64,000 nucleotides of DNA, taken from Synechococcus sp. SynAce01. GTDB lineage: Bacteria; Cyanobacteriota; Cyanobacteriia; PCC-6307; Cyanobiaceae. The notes under the pieces are model-generated. The model had not been told where the DNA came from and did not search any database. It saw only the letters and a list, made by a program, of their open reading frames with translations. The stretch lies in NCBI RefSeq assembly GCF_001885215.1, contig NZ_CP018091.1, forward strand, positions 930,001 through 994,000, read 5' to 3'. This document shows positions 5,993 to 33,045 of the stretch, in pieces (positions within the stretch are counted from its first letter, which is position 1; each line of letters starts with the position of its first letter). Made by a program: the position numbers and the translations under genes.

Positions 5993-6451
5993 ATGGCCAA
6001 ACGCGTATCCGTCGTCCTCAGCGAAGACGTCGCCAGCCTCGGCAAGGACGGTGAACTGGTGGATGTGGCCCCCGGCTACGCCCGGAATTTCCTGCTTCCC
6101 CAGGGCAAGGCCGTGGCGGTGACCGCCGCAGTGCTGCGCCAGGTGGAGCACCGCCGGGCCAAGGAAGCCGAACGCCAGGCCGCCCTGAAGGCGGAGGCCG
6201 AAGCCTTCCGCACGGCCCTGGTCACGATCGGGCGCTTCACCGTTAAGAAGCAGACCGGCGGCGATGACGTGTTGTTCGGCACCGTCACCAACGGCGATGT
6301 GGCTGAAGCGATCGAAGCGGCCACCAAGAAGGAACTGGATCGCCGCGACATCCTGGTGCCCGAAATCCACCGCACCGGCGCCTACAAGGTGCAGGTCAAG
6401 CTCCACCACGACGTGATCGCCGAGATCAACCTCGAAGTGGTCAGCCACTGA
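5993..6451 (+). CDS. rplI: 50S ribosomal protein L9
   Basis: Ribosomal protein L9, binding 23S rRNA near the L1 stalk. The 152-residue product has the family's usual length. The N-terminal RNA-binding domain begins [17 protein letters not shown] and includes [18 protein letters not shown]; a long charged helix follows, then the C-terminal domain with [19 protein letters not shown]. The frame is open 20 codons further upstream, but ATG 5993 gives the conserved N-terminus. dnaB follows 56 bp downstream, the common rplI-dnaB order in bacteria. Confidence 0.97.
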
Positions 6452-6507
6452 GCTTGAACCGAGCCGAAGCGGCGGCTGACCCCCTCGCAGCGGCCTAGCC
6501 TCGGCCC

Positions 6508-7956
6508 ATGGTCAGCGCTCCCCTCTCAGCTCCCGATGGTGGCGGCCCCGAGCCCGGGGGCACCGTCACCCCAGCCAACGTCACCCCAGCTTTCAGGCGC
6601 CGCGGCCGCGAGCAGGACGAAGCCCGCTTCGAGGCCCTGCCCGATCAGGTGCCGCCCCAGAACCTGGAGGCGGAAGAGTCGGTGCTGGGCGGCATCCTGC
6701 TCGACCCCGATGCCCTCGGGCGCATCGCCGACGTGCTGCGTCCGGAGGCCTTCTACCTCAACGCCCACCGCGAGATTTACCGCACCGCCCTGATGCTGCA
6801 CGGCCAGGGCAAGCCCACCGACCTCACGGCCATGGCCGCCTGGCTGGCGGACACCGGCCAGCTCGAGAAGGTGGGCGGCAGCAACCGGCTGGTGGAGCTG
6901 GTGGAGCGCACGCTCAGCACCGCCTCGATCGACCAGGTGGCCCGCCTGGTGATGGACAAATACCTCAGGCGGCAGCTGATCCGCTCGGGCAATGAGGTGA
7001 TCCGGCTCGGCTTTGATCAGACCAAGCCGATGGACCAGGTGCTCGATGAAGCCGAGCAGCAGATCTTCGCGATCAGCCAGGAAAAACCATCGATAGGGCT
7101 CACCCCCACCGCCGAGATTCTCACCAGCACCTTCAACGAGATCGAAAGCCGTTCGCTCGGCACCTCGGTTGCGGGCATTCCGGTGAACTTCTACGACCTC
7201 GACGCGATCACCCAGGGACTGCAGCGCAGTGACCTGATCATCGTGGCCGGACGCCCGGCGATGGGCAAAACCTCGATCGTGCTCAACATCGCCAAGAACG
7301 TGGCCCAGCTCCACCAGCTGCCGGTCTGCGTGTTCAGCCTGGAGATGAGCAAAGCCCAGCTCACCTACCGCCTGCTTTCGATGGAGGTGGGCATCGAGAG
7401 CGGGCGGCTGCGCACCGGCCGGCTGCAGCAGGAGGAATGGCCCCGGCTCGGCCAAGGCATCAACACCCTCGGCCAGCTGCCGCTGTTCATCGACGACAAG
7501 CCCAATGCCGGTGTGCTCGAGATGCGCTCCCTCTGCCGGCGGCTGATGGCCGAGCAGGGCAAGGAGCTGGGCCTGATCGTGATTGATTACCTGCAGCTGA
7601 TGGAGGGCACCACCCCCGACAACCGGGTGCAGGAACTCTCCCGCATCACCCGGGGCCTCAAGGGGATGGCGCGCGAGCTGAACGTGCCGGTGATCGCCCT
7701 CTCCCAGCTCAGCCGCGGCGTCGAATCGCGCACCAACAAGCGGCCGATGCTCAGCGATCTGCGTGAATCAGGCTCGATCGAACAGGACGCCGACCTGGTG
7801 CTGATGATCTACCGCGACGAGTACTACAACCCGGAAACGGCCGATCGCGGCATCACCGAAGTGATCGTCACCAAGCACCGCAACGGGCCTGTAGGCACCG
7901 TGAAATTGCTGTTCGAGCCCCAGTTCACCCGCTTCCGCAACCTGGCGGCGCCTTAA
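6508..7956 (+). CDS. dnaB: Replicative DNA helicase DnaB
   Basis: Hexameric 5'-3' helicase of the replication fork, 482 residues. The N-terminal domain starts near residue 50 (PPQNLEAEESVLGGILLD). The RecA-like motor has Walker A GRPAMGKTS (Lys near residue 254), the SLEMSKAQL segment, Walker B LIVIDYLQLM, the ALSQLSRGVE motif and the C-terminal LSDLRESGSIEQDAD box. The coding sequence is continuous across these motifs, so there is no intein, although DnaB inteins are known in cyanobacteria. It follows rplI on the same strand. Confidence 0.97.
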   Translation: MVSAPLSAPDGGGPEPGGTVTPANVTPAFRRRGREQDEARFEALPDQVPPQNLEAEESVLGGILLDPDALGRIADVLRPEAFYLNAHREIYRTALMLHGQGKPTDLTAMAAWLADTGQLEKVGGSNRLVELVERTLSTASIDQVARLVMDKYLRRQLIRSGNEVIRLGFDQTKPMDQVLDEAEQQIFAISQEKPSIGLTPTAEILTSTFNEIESRSLGTSVAGIPVNFYDLDAITQGLQRSDLIIVAGRPAMGKTSIVLNIAKNVAQLHQLPVCVFSLEMSKAQLTYRLLSMEVGIESGRLRTGRLQQEEWPRLGQGINTLGQLPLFIDDKPNAGVLEMRSLCRRLMAEQGKELGLIVIDYLQLMEGTTPDNRVQELSRITRGLKGMARELNVPVIALSQLSRGVESRTNKRPMLSDLRESGSIEQDADLVLMIYRDEYYNPETADRGITEVIVTKHRNGPVGTVKLLFEPQFTRFRNLAAP

Positions 7957-8080
7957 ACCAGGCGGCACGCCTGCTCGAACGATCAGCTGGATCCTTTTGC
8001 ATCTCCATGATTTCGGCTGTTTCAGGGCGGCGCGGTGTCTCTAAGCTTTGTGGCGACGCCGCCTTTGGGATAACCAGTCC

Positions 8081-8911
8081 ATGCCGATCGCACAGATCGA
8101 CACTGAAAAGATCGACACCGAAACAGTGATCCGTTCGCTCGGCGATCACTCCTTCGTGTTCTACGGACTTGTTTTCTTCGGTATTATTTTAGCCCGTTAT
8201 TTTCTGTTGGCCGGTGGATCCTGGTGGTGGCTCTATGCCCGCAGCCCGGAAACAATTCCCGCACCCACTCCCCAGCAGAGACATCGCAGCGCCGAGGGCA
8301 TCCGCGCTGACATCCGCCTCTCGGTGCTCTCGGCGGTCGTGTTCGCCCTGGCCACCGCCGCGGTGCTCACGCTCCAGAGCCATGGGCTTACGCGCCTCTA
8401 TGCCAAGCCCGACACTTACGGCTGGTGGTACCTGGCCTTGAGCTACGGCGCCATGCTGATCCTTCAAGACGCTCTGTACTACGCCAGCCATCGCCTCTTC
8501 CACCACCGCTGGTTTTACGGCTGGTGTCACCAAGGGCACCACCGCACGCGCCAACCCACCCCCTGGACCTCCTTCGCCTTCGATCCCCCCGAAGCCGTGG
8601 TTCAAGCCCTGGTGCTGGTGCTGCTGGTGATGCTGGTGCCACTGCACCTGATCACCCTGATGGCGGTGCTGAGCACCATGACGGTCTGGGCGATCGTCAA
8701 TCACCTCGGCCTCGATCACCTGCCCCGCCGTTTTCCCCACCACTGGCTGGGCCGCTGGGTGATTGGACCCGCCCACCATTCGCTGCACCATCGACACCCA
8801 GGCGTGCATTTCGGGCTCTACTTCACCTTCTGGGACCGGATCGGCGGCACTGAAGATCCCGACTACGCCGCCGCCCTGGAGCCCCCAAGCGATCTGGGCG
8901 CCATACATTGA
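8081..8911 (+). CDS. Sterol desaturase / fatty acid hydroxylase family protein
   Basis: Integral membrane di-iron oxygenase, 276 residues. It has the histidine clusters of the sterol desaturase family: [19 protein letters not shown] and [14 protein letters not shown]. At least four hydrophobic segments are visible (around residues 25-45, 75-95, 115-135 and 185-215). The substrate cannot be told from sequence; carotenoid, sterol-like lipid or acyl chains are all handled by relatives. ATG 8081 is preferred to the upstream TTG. The stop is only 4 bases before mnmG, so the two are likely co-transcribed. Confidence 0.85.
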
Positions 8912-25221: not shown

Positions 25222-25342
25222 GGCAGGGGTTGGGGAGATCAGCCCATGCTCTCAAAGGGGGGCTCAGTAGCGTTGAAGCGGAAACCTGCCTCAAGCCCTA
25301 GCACTGGATGCACTGCTGAACACACAAGCCTGGAATTGATTC

Positions 25343-25993
25343 TTGTTGGTACGCAGAATCGCTAGACAGCTCATCTCCATCGCCTCCCGCCTCACCGCAG
25401 CAGGGCTTGCCCTGCTACCGCTGGCGGCAGATGCAGCACCAAACGGCACGTGGCTATCCAAACCACAGATCTGGTTTTACACCTCAACCAATACCATCAC
25501 CCAGACCCTGGCCCGGATGCGCGCGGCTCGCTATCGCGTGGTGTTTCTGGATTACCGGAACGTCGCTGATCCCGTTCAACAGCACGTTGCCCAGGAGGCC
25601 CGTCAACAAGGGCTGATGCCCGTGGTCTGGGTGCAATCACCGCAATACCGGTCCATGAGTATTCCAGACCTGGTGAATGAAGCCCGCCATGGGGATGGCA
25701 TCCAGGTGGATGATCACTTTTTTGCCAATTACACCCGGGCCGACTTTTATCGACTTCGCCAGCTCTACACCAAGCCAATTTTTTGCAGCATCCAGCCCTT
25801 CCAGGTTGCGCTTTTGCCTCCCGGCGGCTGCAACCAGCTTGACGTGCAGTGCTACACAGCCCAGACATTTCAACAATGCGTCAAAACGGCTGATCGGCTC
25901 GGGGCCGTGGTGAGCTTGTCAACTAAAAACACCCTCGGATATCAAAACAGCCTGGGTACACGGCGCTTCAATACGTTCCTTTGGCCCGGCTGA
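25343..25993 (+). CDS. Secreted hypothetical protein
   Basis: 216 residues with a signal peptide (RRIARQLISIASR, then LTAAGLALLPLAADAAP). The mature part contains WLSKPQIWFYTSTNTITQT, VVFLDYRNVADPVQQHV and GIQVDDHFFANYTRADFY, a pattern reminiscent of TIM-barrel glycoside-hydrolase-like secreted proteins, though I cannot name the family. Cysteines cluster near the C-terminus. The start is TTG 25343 or the adjacent TTG 25346. It lies upstream of the bufferin genes in the same direction, separated by a 230-bp leader, so a link is possible but not shown. Confidence 0.65.
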   Translation: MLVRRIARQLISIASRLTAAGLALLPLAADAAPNGTWLSKPQIWFYTSTNTITQTLARMRAARYRVVFLDYRNVADPVQQHVAQEARQQGLMPVVWVQSPQYRSMSIPDLVNEARHGDGIQVDDHFFANYTRADFYRLRQLYTKPIFCSIQPFQVALLPPGGCNQLDVQCYTAQTFQQCVKTADRLGAVVSLSTKNTLGYQNSLGTRRFNTFLWPG

Positions 25994-26036
25994 GGGCCAC
26001 CAGAGGCTGCCCTGCAGGTGGCAACCTTCTGAGGCC

Positions 26037-26071
26037 AAAATCTCAAGGTGAAATCTCGAAACAAAATCTCA
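26037..26071 (+). promoter_or_regulatory. Three AAATCTC direct repeats, 13-bp period, upstream of bufA
   Basis: The heptamer AAATCTC occurs at 26038-26044, 26051-26057 and 26064-26070, each 13 bases after the last, about 155-185 bp before the bufA start. Evenly spaced direct repeats of this kind are typical operators of response regulators. The regulator is unknown. Confidence 0.45.
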
Positions 26072-26199
26072 GAATAAAAACGCCGTCAGGGTTTCCACGC
26101 AATATTGCAACGGCGCCAATCCGTTCGCCGCCGTCATCGGTATGTCCAACGGTCGGCCATCATCCCGATGCTTGCGCCGCCCAGAACTGACACTTCGCC

Positions 26200-26215
26200 A
26201 CCTCCCGCTGGAGGT
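26200..26215 (+). promoter_or_regulatory. Ribosome site of bufA inside a small hairpin
   Basis: ACCTCC-CGCT-GGAGGT forms a perfect 6-bp stem with a 4-base loop. The right arm contains GGAGG, the Shine-Dalgarno sequence 9 bases before ATG 26224. The site decides the bufA start and could limit translation unless the hairpin is opened. Confidence 0.5.
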
Positions 26216-26223
26216 CTTCGAGC

Positions 26224-26499
26224 ATGACATCTGCAACAGCCAAAACAGCCATGAACGCCGCCCTCTCAGGCGTTCTGGCCCTCGGCCTGGTGGGCGCCAC
26301 CGCCGGTGAGGCCCTCGCGGGCAAAGCCGGCATGGAGAAATGCGCCGGCATCGCCAAAGCGGGCATGAATGACTGCGGCACCAGCAAGCACAGCTGCGCA
26401 GGAGAAGCGAAGGTTTCGGGTGATCCCGAAGAGTGGGTGTACGTGCCCAAGGGCACTTGCAAGAAGATTGTTGGAGGAACGATCAAGAAAGCCAGCTGA
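26224..26499 (+). CDS. bufA: Bufferin-type precursor peptide (DUF2282)
   Basis: 91-residue precursor of the bufferin class of exported, copper-binding RiPPs. The first ~32 residues form a signal peptide ([21 protein letters not shown]). The core has the DUF2282 pattern of four cysteines, in [27 protein letters not shown] and [12 protein letters not shown]. In characterised bufferins some of these Cys are converted to metal-binding heterocycles by the BufB-BufC pair. Both partner genes follow directly on the same strand, which supports the call. Start and ribosome site are clear. A stable hairpin follows the stop before bufB. Confidence 0.87.
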
Positions 26500-26514
26500 A
26501 CCCAGGTGCCAGTG

Positions 26515-26546
26515 CCTATCGGGTTGAGGCCAACCATCCCGATAGG
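26515..26546 (+). promoter_or_regulatory. Intercistronic hairpin between bufA and bufB
   Basis: CCTATCGGG at 26515-26523 pairs perfectly with CCCGATAGG at 26538-26546, and the loop contains a further TTG/CAA pairing. There is no T-run, so it looks less like a full terminator than an mRNA-stabilising or partial-attenuation element that would favour precursor over enzyme synthesis. Confidence 0.55.
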
Positions 26547-26571
26547 TCCATCGGCCAAGACTGGCAACCCA

Positions 26572-27411
26572 ATGAACCAACCAAGCGCCATGACTCTGCA
26601 CGGAGTGGGCCTGGGCCTGCGCTCCCAGCACTATGCCCCCATCCTCAGCACAACCCCAGCCATCCCCTGGTTCGAGGCCCTCTCGGACAACTATCTCGGC
26701 GGCGGCCTGCCGTTGTGGCATCTCACCGCCATCCGGGAGCGCTATCCCCTCACCCTGCATGGGGTCGGCCTGTCGATTGGCTCCGCCGATGCGCTCAACT
26801 GGGCCTACCTGCATCGTTTGAAAGCCCTGGCCGATCGGATTGAGCCCGTCTACGTGTCCGACCACCTGGCCTGGGTGTCAAGCGGCGGCCACTACTTCAA
26901 CGATCTCGCCCCGCTGCCCTACACCGATTCCGTTCTCACTTATGTTGCCGATCGAATCCAGCAGGTGCAGGAATTTCTGGGCCGGCGCATCCTGATCGAA
27001 AACCTGTCGCCCTATCTGCAGTTTGCTGGCAACGACCTCAGCGAATGGCAATTTCTCGCCGCATTGGCCGAAAAGGCTGACTGTGATCTGCTGCTCGATG
27101 TCAACAATATCTATGTCAATGCCATGAATCACGGCTTTGATCCCATGGAGTATCTGGCGGCGATCTCGATTGATCGCGTCAAAGAGATACACCTGGCCGG
27201 CTATGAGCAGCAGGGATCCTTTCTCTTCGATACCCATGGAAAGCCGGTGCAGCCTGGTGTGTGGGCGTTATACGAGCGGGCCCTGGAACGCTTTGGCCCG
27301 GTGCCCACCCTGATCGAATGGGACACCGACATCCCCAGCTTTGACGTGCTCCAGGCCGAAGCCCACAAAGCCGAGCAATGCCGATGCCAACGCCAGCTCC
27401 CAACGACCTGA
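26572..27411 (+). CDS. bufB: DUF692 multinuclear-iron RiPP enzyme (MbnB/BufB-like)
   Basis: 279 residues from ATG 26572 (ATG 26590 is also possible). TIM-barrel enzyme of the DUF692 family, which includes MbnB of methanobactin synthesis and uses iron to oxidise Cys residues of precursor peptides. Likely metal ligands sit in LTLHGVGLS, YVSDHLAW, RILIENLSPYL, LLLDVNNIYVN, KEIHLAGYE and LIEWDTDIP, the expected His/Asp/Glu/Asn set. It lies 72 bp after bufA and overlaps bufC by 34 bp. Neighbouring precursor and partner genes make a bufferin-modifying role likely. Confidence 0.87.
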   Translation: MNQPSAMTLHGVGLGLRSQHYAPILSTTPAIPWFEALSDNYLGGGLPLWHLTAIRERYPLTLHGVGLSIGSADALNWAYLHRLKALADRIEPVYVSDHLAWVSSGGHYFNDLAPLPYTDSVLTYVADRIQQVQEFLGRRILIENLSPYLQFAGNDLSEWQFLAALAEKADCDLLLDVNNIYVNAMNHGFDPMEYLAAISIDRVKEIHLAGYEQQGSFLFDTHGKPVQPGVWALYERALERFGPVPTLIEWDTDIPSFDVLQAEAHKAEQCRCQRQLPTT

Positions 27412-28220
27412 TCCGCCTGCAACGGCTGTTCCATGGGGCGATCAGCCCTGGCGGTGATCCGGCCTGCCTGGAAGCCCTGGAGCCGCAGCTGCATTGCTCC
27501 GGCAGCCTCAGCGTGCGGCAGGGGATTGCGGCCTACAAGGGCAGCGTGAAAGGCAAGCTCATCCGTTGCCTGGAGGAGATCTATCCCGTCTGTCACCGTT
27601 TGGTGGGCGCGGCCTTCTTCGGCGGCCTGGCCGAGACGTACGTAATGCAGAACGCGTCAACCTCGCCCGATCTGGGGGACTATGGCGGTGATCTGCCGGT
27701 CTTCCTTCAGACCTTTCCGCCTGCAAACCCATTGCCCTATCTCGCCGATGTGGCGCAACTGGAGTGGCACTGGCACCGGGCCTTCAACGCTGCAGATGAG
27801 GGCGGCATCGACCTGACGGCCCTAGCCCAGGTGGCGCCTGGGCAATGGGAGCGGTTGGTGTTCCAACTGCCTCAATCCAGTGTGCTGATGCAATCCGACT
27901 TCCCTGTGCATCGGATCTGGCAGGCCAATCAGGCCGACGCCACGGATTCAGAGACCATTGACCTCGATGAGGGGAGTGTGAATCTCTTCATCTGGAGAGA
28001 TGGGGTTGAAACCCGGATTGACCTGCCGAACCCTGACGAATGGCGGCTGCTGGAGGGCTTTGCCGCCAGAACGGCCTTTGGCCAGCTCTGCAGCGAGCTC
28101 GATCAGGGGGCGATCCCTGTGGAGCCCGCCGTGTTGCTGCCGGTCTTTGTGCAGCGCGGCTGGGTGCGCTCGTTTGTGCTGGGCAACGCCATGCCTCAGG
28201 CCGCCAGCCGTTTGACGTAG
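27378..28220 (+). CDS. bufC: DUF2063-type partner protein (BufC-like)
   Basis: 280 residues. The N-terminal DNA-binding-like DUF2063 domain is visible as LQRLFHGAISPG, RQGIAAYKGSVKGKLIRCLEEIYPV and the conserved LVGAAFF. The C-terminal part (LAQLEWHWHRAF-like region VAQLEWHWHRAFNAADEGG) completes the fold. In methanobactin and bufferin systems this partner binds the precursor and forms the working complex with the DUF692 enzyme. The gene overlaps bufB, so the two are translationally linked. No DoxX-type bufD follows; the next gene is convergent. Confidence 0.84.
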   Translation: MPMPTPAPNDLIRLQRLFHGAISPGGDPACLEALEPQLHCSGSLSVRQGIAAYKGSVKGKLIRCLEEIYPVCHRLVGAAFFGGLAETYVMQNASTSPDLGDYGGDLPVFLQTFPPANPLPYLADVAQLEWHWHRAFNAADEGGIDLTALAQVAPGQWERLVFQLPQSSVLMQSDFPVHRIWQANQADATDSETIDLDEGSVNLFIWRDGVETRIDLPNPDEWRLLEGFAARTAFGQLCSELDQGAIPVEPAVLLPVFVQRGWVRSFVLGNAMPQAASRLT

Positions 28221-28837
28221 TCCTCCAGCCGGCCGGCATTGATCCAGCCGGTGGCGATGGTTTTGCTGTGTTCCTCGCTTACCCGACCCCGGTGGATGTG
28301 CGACACCCCGGCAGGGAAAATCGCCAGCTTGCCCCGCTCCGCTTCCTCGTGGTGTCCCTGCCAATGGAACTCGGTGCCCCCCTCGGGCAGGGAGTTGCAG
28401 TAGAGAATCCAGGCCAGGACGCGGGCGTGGGGTTCGGTGGCTTCATCGCTGAGGGTCCAGTCGCAGTGCCACTGGCGAAAGCCTTCCCTAGGGGCATAGC
28501 GCTGCAGGTTGAAGATCGGGTTCACGAACAGGCTCTGCTCGGGGCAGCACTGGCGCAGCAGCGGCCTCTCCTTGAGGTATTGGCTGAGGCCGGCGTTCAC
28601 GCCGCGCAGGATCACCTCGGCTAAGGCGAAGGCCTCTGGATCGCTGCGGTCGATCTCCACCAGGCTGATGTCAGTGGACACCTTCGCGGGAAGGCTGGCT
28701 GACTCAGCTTCGGGACCAACCTCAGGGCCGAAGGCCACACCTGGGCGCTGCAGGTCGCTGCGGTGATCAAAAAAGGCCATCACCCCATCGGCCAGGGCCG
28801 TGAAGCCGTTGTTTTGATACGTGGCAATCAGGTTCAT
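28196..28837 (-). CDS. 2OG-Fe(II) oxygenase (prolyl-4-hydroxylase-like)
   Basis: 213 residues. The iron-binding triad of the family is visible as FRQWHCDWTLSD (H-x-D) and SHIHRGRVSEEHSKTIATGW (distal His, and the Arg/Lys region that holds 2-oxoglutarate). It may hydroxylate a protein or small molecule; the substrate is unknown. The 3' end overlaps bufC by 25 bp on the opposite strand. Its ATG overlaps the stop of the next gene upstream (28834), so these two minus-strand genes form an operon. A tie to the bufferin genes is possible only by position. Confidence 0.82.
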   Translation of the reverse strand: MNLIATYQNNGFTALADGVMAFFDHRSDLQRPGVAFGPEVGPEAESASLPAKVSTDISLVEIDRSDPEAFALAEVILRGVNAGLSQYLKERPLLRQCCPEQSLFVNPIFNLQRYAPREGFRQWHCDWTLSDEATEPHARVLAWILYCNSLPEGGTEFHWQGHHEEAERGKLAIFPAGVSHIHRGRVSEEHSKTIATGWINAGRLEDYVKRLAA

Positions 28838-32007: not shown

Positions 32008-33045
32008 ATGGTCCCTGTGCCCGTCACCGTGCTCACCGGCTTTCTCGGTGCCGGCAAGACCACGCTCCTCAACCACATTCTCAGCAACCAGAAGGGTGTG
32101 CGCAGTGCTGTATTAGTCAATGAATTCGGCGAGGTTGGCATCGACAACGAACTGGTGGTGACCACCAGCGACAACATGGTGGAGCTCAGTAACGGCTGCA
32201 TTTGTTGTTCAATCAACGGTGAGCTGCAAGAGGCGGTTCAGCGCGTTCTGGAGCGCCCTGATCCGCCGGATTTCATCGTGGTGGAGACCACCGGATTGGC
32301 CGATCCGCTACCGGTGGCCCTCACCTTCATGGCTGGTGAGTTTCGCGATTTGCTCCGTTTGGATTCGATCATCACCTTGATCGATGCCGAGCATTTTGAT
32401 GGCGCTTTTGTTGAGAAGAGCCCGATTGCCAGGGCTCAAGTTGTGTACGGCGACATCCTTGTACTCAACAAATGTGACCTTGTCGATGCCGAACGGCTAG
32501 TGGCCGTGGAGGCTCGCCTGAGGGAGATCAAGCCCGATGCCCGCATCCTGCATGCCAGCCATGGCGATGTGCCCCTGTCAATGCTGCTGAGTGTGGGCCT
32601 GTTCGAAACGGATCTATTGGTGGCGCTCCAAGACCAGGAAGCGCTCAGAAAGGATCACGACCACCACGTCCATCACGGCCAAGATCACCAACACAACCAC
32701 CATCAATCGCACGACCATGTGCACAACCACGCAGACGCCCACACGCCTGAGCTGGAGGGATTCCGTTCAGTGTCTCTAGCGGCAGATGCTCCCTTTGATC
32801 TACGCCGCTTTCAACACTTTCTCGACAAGCAGCTGCCGGCCAACGTGTTTCGAGCCAAGGGGGTGCTCTGGTTTCGCGAGAGCAACCGCCGCCACCTGTT
32901 TCACCTCTGCGGCAAACGCTTCACGATTGATGATTCCGACTGGCCGCAAGGCAGCCCTCGGCACACCAAGGTGGTAGCGATCGGCAAAGACATTGATCAG
33001 GCCGGCCTAAAGGCGCAGCTCGAGGCCTGTTTGGCAGAACGATGA
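32008..33045 (+). CDS. COG0523 (CobW/ZNG-type) GTPase, likely zinc metallochaperone, copy 1
   Basis: 345 residues. G1/Walker A GFLGAGKTT, the metal-binding CxCC motif in NGCICCSINGE, the ETTGLADP segment, NKCD for guanine specificity and a CobW C-terminal domain (FRAKGVLWFRESN). A His-rich loop (DHDHHVHHGQDHQHNHHQ) lies near residue 216. Zur-regulated members of this family are thought to hand zinc to client enzymes during starvation. A perfect Zur box lies just upstream. It overlaps the next gene by 4 bases and starts a five-gene operon. Confidence 0.92.
   Translation: MVPVPVTVLTGFLGAGKTTLLNHILSNQKGVRSAVLVNEFGEVGIDNELVVTTSDNMVELSNGCICCSINGELQEAVQRVLERPDPPDFIVVETTGLADPLPVALTFMAGEFRDLLRLDSIITLIDAEHFDGAFVEKSPIARAQVVYGDILVLNKCDLVDAERLVAVEARLREIKPDARILHASHGDVPLSMLLSVGLFETDLLVALQDQEALRKDHDHHVHHGQDHQHNHHQSHDHVHNHADAHTPELEGFRSVSLAADAPFDLRRFQHFLDKQLPANVFRAKGVLWFRESNRRHLFHLCGKRFTIDDSDWPQGSPRHTKVVAIGKDIDQAGLKAQLEACLAER

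What the first reader, a model, noticed from the sequence alone, without database searches (positions are those of the whole stretch)
26224..28220. Three-gene bufferin-type RiPP locus in a cyanobacterium
Seen: a DUF2282 precursor with signal peptide and four cysteines, followed by DUF692 and DUF2063 genes. Known: BufB-BufC-type pairs modify Cys residues of such precursors into copper-binding groups. Inference: the cell exports a modified Cys peptide to handle copper or another metal. The usual DoxX-type membrane gene is absent, and a secreted unknown and a 2OG-Fe(II) oxygenase flank the set.
Basis: partly seen in the sequence, partly recalled or inferred. Interest (0 to 1): 0.78.

Follow-up and report, generated by a model that had tools for sequence, protein, structure and literature searches.

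The report
Cyanobacterial bufferin operon, likely sigma-controlled
A small cyanobacterium carries two copies of a known gene set for making a metal-binding exported peptide, and the DNA in front of both looks like a switch controlled by a stress-response sigma factor that also fronts arsenic-processing genes.

Summary
Window 26224-28220 encodes a complete bufferin-1 (Buf1) set: a DUF2282 precursor with signal peptide and four Cys, an MNIO maturase above the NCBIfam BufB cut-off with its compared active-site residues conserved, and a DUF2063/RRE partner. A second full bufABC lies 69 kb away.

DoxX absence is not odd: 1 of 22 cyanobacterial loci has it, against 34 of 63 other loci. The secreted unknown and the 2OG oxygenase are bystanders. 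In a close relative other genes replace 25230-28217, so bufABC is an accessory cassette.

New here: a site upstream of bufA (26119-26142) lies before all six Cyanobiaceae bufA genes found. In those five genomes it has four other exact hits: three before an ECF sigma/anti-sigma pair, one before an exported thioredoxin gene. Found de novo in ECF promoters of 36 other loci, the same element ranks the bufA site first in the 64-kb window. In SynAce01 the sigma pair is followed by ArsS and an ArsM-like gene. I infer that this ECF drives bufABC in a metal(loid)/thiol-stress regulon. Peptide modification, copper binding and sigma control are untested.

The parts
26119..26142 (+). predicted ECF-sigma promoter (ATCCGTTCG-N10-CGGTA), 81 nt before the bufA start codon
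   Evidence: present before all 6 Cyanobiaceae bufA genes found; best of all positions in the 64-kb window for a matrix found de novo in ECF-gene upstream regions of non-carriers, 24.8 bits vs next 13.0; function inferred
26224..26499 (+). bufA, Buf1 (DUF2282) precursor, 91 aa, signal peptide read from the sequence, four Cys
   Evidence: PF10048 E 3.2e-24; alignment of 28 BufA proteins
26572..27411 (+). bufB, MNIO (DUF692) maturase, 279 aa
   Evidence: PF05114 E 3.8e-106, NCBIfam MNIO_BufB above cut-off; active-site residues conserved; nearest solved structure by sequence 3BWW
27378..28220 (+). bufC, DUF2063/RRE partner protein, 280 aa, overlaps bufB by 34 nt
   Evidence: PF09836 E 2.7e-15; family profile matches 3DEE, E 2.2e-4 for the whole chain; model (mean pLDDT 87.7) matches TglI 8hi7 and 3dee
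25230..28217 (.). variable segment: replaced by 3.2 kb of other sequence in the same-genus genome G387, flanks 87-91% identical
25343..25993 (+). secreted protein of unknown family; bystander inside the variable segment
   Evidence: no Pfam or NCBIfam match; unlinked to bufABC elsewhere
28196..28837 (-). 2OG-Fe(II) oxygenase, conserved genus gene flanking the segment; bystander
   Evidence: PF13640; present in 4 of 4 genus genomes

Best explanation
This is a bufferin-1 operon, one of two in this genome, carried as an accessory cassette. BufA is made in the cytoplasm. BufC presents it to the iron oxidase BufB, which converts the two central Cys (C51, C58) into sulfur-containing heterocycles (5-thiooxazoles by homology). 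The product is exported by Sec, where the outer Cys (C40, C79) form a disulfide and the modified pair binds a thiophilic metal, most likely copper. Transcription of both copies in this genome most likely starts at a promoter read by a trans-encoded ECF sigma factor held by an RskA-type anti-sigma factor. The same sigma would also drive its own operon (with ArsS and ArsM-like genes) and an exported thioredoxin/DsbD-type pair. Shown by calls: gene content, conserved residues, duplication, variable site, shared promoter-like site. Inferred: the chemistry, the metal, export of the modified form, sigma control, the signal.
For: Family models. In 85 BufB rows, H63, H98, E143, D176, N178/N179, H207, D220, H222, E249 and D251 are invariant wherever the row is not a gap; N178/N179, D220 and H222 correspond, through 3BWW, to HvfB N175, D242 and H244, whose replacement abolished activity in PMC13419390 (passages). 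S18 and T252, placed by the same route, are variable, as PMC12668002 reports for DUF2282-type MNIOs (passages). The four Cys are kept in 27 of 28 aligned BufA proteins. The BufC model matches TglI and NGO1945. Promoter: the motif read from six bufA upstream regions has 10 exact hits in 5 genomes and 0 with the reversed pattern; 6 are bufA, 3 lie before ECF/anti-sigma pairs, 1 before the thioredoxin gene. It lies before 34 of 44 ECF genes with at most 1 mismatch, reversed control 0 of 44. Without any bufA input, the most frequent gapped 4-mer pair in the upstream regions of 36 ECF loci of non-carriers is ATCC-N16-GGTA (32 of 36; best in five shuffled sets 9), and the matrix from those sites ranks the bufA site first in the window, in L003 and in L028-L031. 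All 5 buf-carrying Cyanobiaceae genomes found have the ECF, which 56 of 400 family genomes have at E < 1e-60.
Against: No expression, mass or metal data. G429 carries bufABC, but its own ECF gene has only a 3-mismatch site. Promoters of orthologous ECF genes are related, so the loci are not independent cases, and ECF carriage may follow genome size and kinship. The matrices also give 14-20 bits inside bufB coding sequence of two Acaryochloris loci, where no sigma link is claimed. None of the 15 other cyanobacterial bufABC loci with upstream sequence has the motif in the stretch searched, so such control would be a feature of Cyanobiaceae. NCBIfam has no match for BufA above a cut-off, and BufC is below the HvfC cut-off.
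Confidence: 0.72

Rival explanations
1. It is an ordinary bufferin-1 operon and the upstream site is a general promoter or a chance resemblance; bufABC is expressed constitutively or under a copper sensor not seen here.
For: The consensus scan finds no sigma-70-like promoter and terminators only at the chance level. None of the 15 other cyanobacterial bufABC loci with upstream sequence has the motif. The motif was first read from only six related sequences.
Against: Three of the four other exact hits lie directly before ECF/anti-sigma pairs, reversed control 0; the element is found de novo in ECF upstream regions of non-carriers and then points to the bufA site first in each of the six Cyanobiaceae buf loci; SynAce01 upstream regions and three of the four other Cyanobiaceae ones share no further similarity beyond one 9-nt match.
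Confidence: 0.22
2. The locus handles another thiophilic element, for instance arsenite, mercury or gold, or buffers exported thiols during oxidative stress, rather than copper.
For: The predicted sigma pair sits before ArsS (439.5 bits, cut-off 300), a MerA-like reductase and an ArsM-like methyltransferase, both below their cut-offs. PMC12452194 notes MerC fusions (section 14) and gold-linked operons (passage).
Against: The functional data on bufferins that I saw in abstracts and passages concern copper. ArsS and ArsM may be in the operon without the signal being arsenic.
Confidence: 0.25
3. The cassette is a recent passenger that is not functional in this host.
For: It lies in a replaceable segment, and the same-genus genome G386 keeps only a broken bufC remnant at that site. 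Cyanobium Cruz-8D1 lacks a stretch of BufA including Cys1.
Against: Both SynAce01 copies are intact with 81% BufB identity, all Cys and active-site residues, the bufB-bufC overlap and the upstream site kept.
Confidence: 0.08

Closest known systems
Bufferin-1 (Buf1, DUF2282) clusters, mostly described in Pseudomonadota (PMC12452194: passages and sections 13, 14, 20 read)
   Same: precursor with signal peptide and four Cys, MNIO, DUF2063/RRE partner, order bufABC
   Different: no DoxX gene; no sigma/NrsF gene among the neighbours examined; predicted control by a trans-encoded ECF/RskA pair; two copies in a picocyanobacterium
Captophorins/oxazolins: HvfABC and FonABC (PMC12668002 and PMC13419390, passages read)
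   Same: MNIO plus PME-type 1 partner, Cys to 5-thiooxazole, copper link; residues matching the HvfB site-3 ligands are conserved
   Different: precursor has no EGKCG repeats; BufB has S18 and T252 where, by alignment through 3BWW, the Lys-Cys type keeps Arg and Phe
BufA2 (Buf2) metallophores, NCBIfam NF050166
   Same: signal peptide, Cys-rich, MNIO-modified
   Different: window BufA scores 22.2 bits against a cut-off of 60 and has four Cys, not six
SigK/RskA type ECF systems (named in PMC7406223, passages read)
   Same: ECF sigma gene followed by an anti-sigma gene with the RskA C-terminal domain
   Different: cyanobacterial pair with ArsS and ArsM-like genes downstream; predicted to control bufferins

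Membership tests
Bufferin-1 (Buf1) | DUF2282 precursor with signal peptide and four conserved Cys | tested here: met
   PF10048 E 3.2e-24; Cys 40, 51, 58, 79 aligned; signal peptide judged from the sequence, no predictor available
Bufferin-1 (Buf1) | MNIO maturase of the BufB kind with conserved active-site residues | tested here: met
   NCBIfam MNIO_BufB 368.5 vs 310 bits; conserved columns in 85 rows
Bufferin-1 (Buf1) | PME-type 1 partner: DUF2063 domain plus RRE | tested here: met
   PF09836; model's best PDB hits are TglI and 3dee, at 14-15% identity; sequence profile alone gives a weak 3dee match
Bufferin-1 (Buf1) | gene order bufABC | tested here: met
Bufferin-1 (Buf1) | DoxX gene in the cluster (common, not universal) | tested here: not met
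   none adjacent; the genome's two DoxX proteins score 42 and 30 bits against 76.6 or more for cluster-linked ones; absent from 21 of 22 cyanobacterial loci, some cut by contig ends
Bufferin-1 (Buf1) | thiooxazoles on the central Cys and copper binding | not testable with these tools
   needs mass spectrometry and metal assays
Oxazolin/EGKCG captophorin | EGKCG repeats in the precursor | tested here: not met
   BufA sequence
BufA2 bufferin | score above NF050166 cut-off | tested here: not met
   22.2 vs 60 bits
regulon of the Cyanobiaceae ECF/RskA sigma factor | promoter element shared with the sigma gene's own upstream region | tested here: met
   G429's own ECF site is poor
regulon of the Cyanobiaceae ECF/RskA sigma factor | transcription depends on the sigma factor | not testable with these tools
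   needs a reporter or mutant

The most novel reading that the evidence does not exclude
Picocyanobacteria captured a gammaproteobacterial-type bufferin cassette, without DoxX or any local regulator, and placed it under an existing envelope-sensing ECF/RskA regulon that also makes arsenosugars and exported thiol-disulfide proteins; bufferins there serve a general metal(loid)/thiol stress response of the periplasm or thylakoid lumen.
Probability: 0.35. Interest if true: 0.7.

Novelty: new variant of a known kind. Interest (0 to 1): 0.52.

Why it matters
Bufferins are a recently described copper-buffering peptide family. This places a duplicated, DoxX-free form in a picocyanobacterium, puts its maturase in a clade shared with gammaproteobacteria, and gives a concrete promoter and sigma factor to test. 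If the ECF link holds, it names targets for a cyanobacterial ECF/RskA system on which my searches listed no study, and ties metallophore RiPPs to arsenosugar genes.

Tried and rejected
DoxX elsewhere as a missing bufD: rejected; both genome copies are distant paralogues. Secreted unknown and 2OG oxygenase as cluster members: rejected. Low G+C as proof of transfer: weak; the segment is 0.600 against 0.650 for the window, but 22 of 245 windows of that length are as low. One cyanobacterial origin of BufB: neither shown nor rejected (quick tree, three Thiotrichaceae rows lie inside; AU p 0.46). Sigma-70 promoter and terminator scan: 0 promoter-like sites, 2 terminator-like sites against 2.1 expected. 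BufA in the PDB: nothing useful. Paper search for 'bufferin' alone returned 'buffering' papers. A second MNIO type in other Cyanobiaceae was noted, not resolved.

A flaw found on checking: the matrix used ECF-gene sites that the bufA-derived pattern had picked, so it was partly circular.

Dropped rows: L039 and L040 duplicate L031 and L030 and were left out of the DoxX tallies and the tree. L030 shows no motif because its BufA deletion shifted the start codon my script chose; searches find the site. Three of the 44 ECF loci (G000, G494, G584) were already known.

Full report
WHAT IS THERE. Window 26224-28220 holds three same-strand genes: bufA (26224-26499, 91 aa), bufB (26572-27411, 279 aa) and bufC (27378-28220, 280 aa), the last two overlapping by 34 nt. 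Pfam gives DUF2282 (E 3.2e-24), MbnB_TglH_ChrH (3.8e-106) and DUF2063 (2.7e-15). NCBIfam places BufB above the MNIO_BufB cut-off (368.5 vs 310 bits), while BufC is below the HvfC cut-off (31.8 vs 142) and BufA below the BufA2 cut-off (22.2 vs 60). The Pfam matches are far beyond chance.

THE ORGANISM. The window lies in a one-contig genome of 2,750,634 bases. PMC6337551 gives exactly that size for Synechococcus sp. CS-601 (SynAce01), GenBank CP018091, from an Antarctic habitat (passages); I take them to be the same. A passage there notes one copy of a copper P-type ATPase gene. The G-handles G584 and G494 of the same family have contigs of the same lengths as Cyanobium sp. Aljojuca 7A6 and Cruz-8D1, so the family is that of Cyanobium.

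A SECOND COPY. The genome has two DUF2282 and two MNIO matches. The second set, 69 kb downstream (L003), is bufA 6193-6468, bufB 6514-7335, bufC 7308-8117. The two BufB proteins are 81% identical, and the two loci align at 76% over about 2.07 kb, starting about 105 nt before bufA. Copy 2 ends about 100 nt before a tRNA-Val gene.

FUNCTIONAL RESIDUES. All four BufA Cys are present in 27 of 28 aligned BufA proteins; the exception, Cyanobium Cruz-8D1, lacks a stretch including Cys1. PMC12452194 says that the central Cys are modified and the outer two form a disulfide (section 14). In 85 BufB rows, H63, H98, E143, N144, D176, N178, N179, H207, D220, H222, E249 and D251 are invariant wherever the row is not a gap (82-85 rows). 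N178/N179, D220 and H222 correspond, by my alignment through 3BWW, to HvfB N175, D242 and H244, needed for activity in PMC13419390 (passages). The profile of 20 BufC proteins matches 3DEE weakly (E 2.2e-4 for the chain, neither stretch significant alone); the predicted structure (mean pLDDT 87.7) has 8hi7 (TglI), 3dee and 8hci as its only hits with E below 0.001.

DISTRIBUTION AND DESCENT. DUF2282 is found in 2 of 386 genomes sampled over the phylum and in 1 of 4 genomes of the genus. MNIO matches occur in 20 of 400 family genomes, 19 over the cut-off; in five of them (G000, G429, G458, G494, G584) a DUF2282-type gene stands in front. In a quick tree of 85 BufB rows, the 22 cyanobacterial rows and three Thiotrichaceae rows form one supported group (SH-aLRT 98) next to gammaproteobacterial rows; the root is not inferred, so direction is a suggestion. 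The Cyanobiaceae rows form one group (94) beside Acaryochloris.

DOXX. With a DoxX profile of my own, seeded from six loci, DoxX lies near bufB in 1 of 22 cyanobacterial loci, 0 of 3 nested Thiotrichaceae loci and 34 of 60 others; counting only loci with bufC and at least 700 bp on both sides, 1 of 15, 0 of 1 and 29 of 42. The genome's two DoxX proteins score 42 and 30 bits with that profile, while the lowest cluster-linked one scores 76.6. The three-gene form is the norm among the cyanobacterial loci examined, not an oddity of this one.

VARIABLE SITE. Against G387 of the same genus, both flanks align (90.8% up to window 25229, 87.5% from 28218), but 25230-28217 is replaced by 3.2 kb without a bufABC match; by eye that segment holds MazEF-like and HicAB-like genes. 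G386 keeps a bufC remnant in two frames, about 5 kb from its 2OG oxygenase gene, without bufA or bufB nearby or DUF2282 and MNIO matches anywhere. Beside the tRNA-Val gene there is no bufABC match within about 730 nt in G386 and G388; in G387 the contig ends at that point.

THE UPSTREAM SITE. Aligning the six Cyanobiaceae upstream regions showed one shared element, written as ATCCRWTSG-N10-YGGTA, at 26119-26142 in the window and L003 6089-6112 for copy 2. Among 75 buf loci with upstream sequence, a looser form was found only in Cyanobiaceae (5 of 75, the sixth, L030, missed through a wrong start codon); none of the 15 other cyanobacterial loci has it. In the five buf-carrying Cyanobiaceae genomes the pattern has 10 exact hits and none when reversed. 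Six are the bufA sites. Three others (G494, G584, G000) lie directly before an ECF sigma gene; for G494 and G000 Pfam confirms the sigma regions and, in the next gene, RskA_C; in G584 the sigma gene is confirmed by similarity and the anti-sigma was recognised by eye. The tenth (G000 395917) lies before an exported thioredoxin-like gene with a DsbD_TM-type gene downstream.

TEST OF THE LINK. The ECF protein has relatives in 72 of 400 family genomes, 56 of them at E < 1e-60, including all five buf carriers found. I examined 44 ECF loci (30 best matches and 14 that I picked, 3 of these distant as controls). The bufA-derived motif lies in the 310 nt before the gene with 0 mismatches in 17, at most 1 in 34 and at most 2 in 38 of 44; the reversed control gives 0, 0 and 2; the three distant ECFs (43-47% identical) have none. 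Three of the 44 were already known. A first matrix from 31 of these sites was partly circular, because the bufA pattern had picked them. So I looked de novo in the 36 close ECF loci that do not belong to the five carriers: of all pairs of 4-mers with gaps of 6-21, ATCC-N16-GGTA is the most frequent, in 32 of 36 loci, against a best of 8-9 in each of five shuffled sets. A matrix from those 30 distinct sites scores the bufA site 24.8 bits, first in the 64-kb window on both strands (next 13.0), and is first in copy 2 (17.1, next 5.4) and in L028-L031 (20.8-31.0, next at most 10.3). SynAce01 upstream regions and three of the four other Cyanobiaceae ones share nothing else that BLAST aligns beyond one 9-nt match (L030 not compared). 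Against: in G429 the ECF's own site is poor (3 mismatches), related promoters are not independent cases, and the matrices give 14-20 bits inside bufB coding sequence of two Acaryochloris loci.

WHAT THE SIGMA MIGHT SENSE. In SynAce01 the pair is followed on the same strand by ArsS (439.5 bits, cut-off 300), a VTT/MerA-like reductase and an ArsM-like methyltransferase, the last two below their cut-offs; in G458 ArsS (445.3 bits) and an ArsM-like gene also follow the sigma gene. This suggests metal(loid) or thiol stress. It does not show the signal.

LITERATURE. The bufferin landscape paper PMC12452194 has no occurrence of 'cyanobacteri' in its main text; its figures and supplements could not be read, so its taxonomic charts may include cyanobacteria. 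It reports sigma and NrsF genes in Buf1 clusters (section 14). Two papers hold both 'bufferins' and 'cyanobacteria'; the passages read do not describe a cyanobacterial bufferin, though one describes other MNIO systems in cyanobacteria. Searches on DUF2282, ECF, RskA, copper and picocyanobacteria listed nothing on this link in the rows shown; passages of PMC7406223 and PMC10141476 do not mention it. The library lacks most subscription journals, so novelty is provisional.

VERDICT. A genuine bufferin-1 operon, ordinary in its enzymes, duplicated and at variable sites in a picocyanobacterium, with a well-supported but untested prediction that a trans-acting ECF sigma factor controls it.

Noticed in passing
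L013-L019 and L034, L035 (G583, G574, G571, G580, G437, G600, G324): A second, lower-scoring kind of MNIO gene in Cyanobiaceae; the three read (L013, L015, L017) have SAGLNLCHEN near the start. In L034 and L035 very large proteins (about 1400-1530 aa) lie within a few kb. Precursor not identified.
   Followed up: partly
L030/L040 (Cyanobium sp. Cruz-8D1): BufA lacks a stretch including Cys1, so the outer disulfide could not form; bufB and bufC matches are kept.
   Followed up: no
L042 (Candidatus Thiomargarita nelsonii): BufA with two tandem DUF2282-like units in one protein.
   Followed up: no
L053 (Prochloraceae PL24a_bin.78): Three BufA genes in a row and a DoxX gene upstream, the only one of 22 cyanobacterial loci with DoxX.
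   Followed up: no
L194 2804-3187 (G458): A DoxX gene directly before the ECF sigma gene, weakly like HvfX (20.5 bits, cut-off 80).
   Followed up: partly
window 32008-33045: CobW-family GTPase with a His-rich stretch, perhaps a metal chaperone, outside the variable segment.
   Followed up: no
L086, L091, L103: One open frame matches both BufB and BufC: apparent MNIO-partner fusions in Omnitrophota and Archangium.
   Followed up: no
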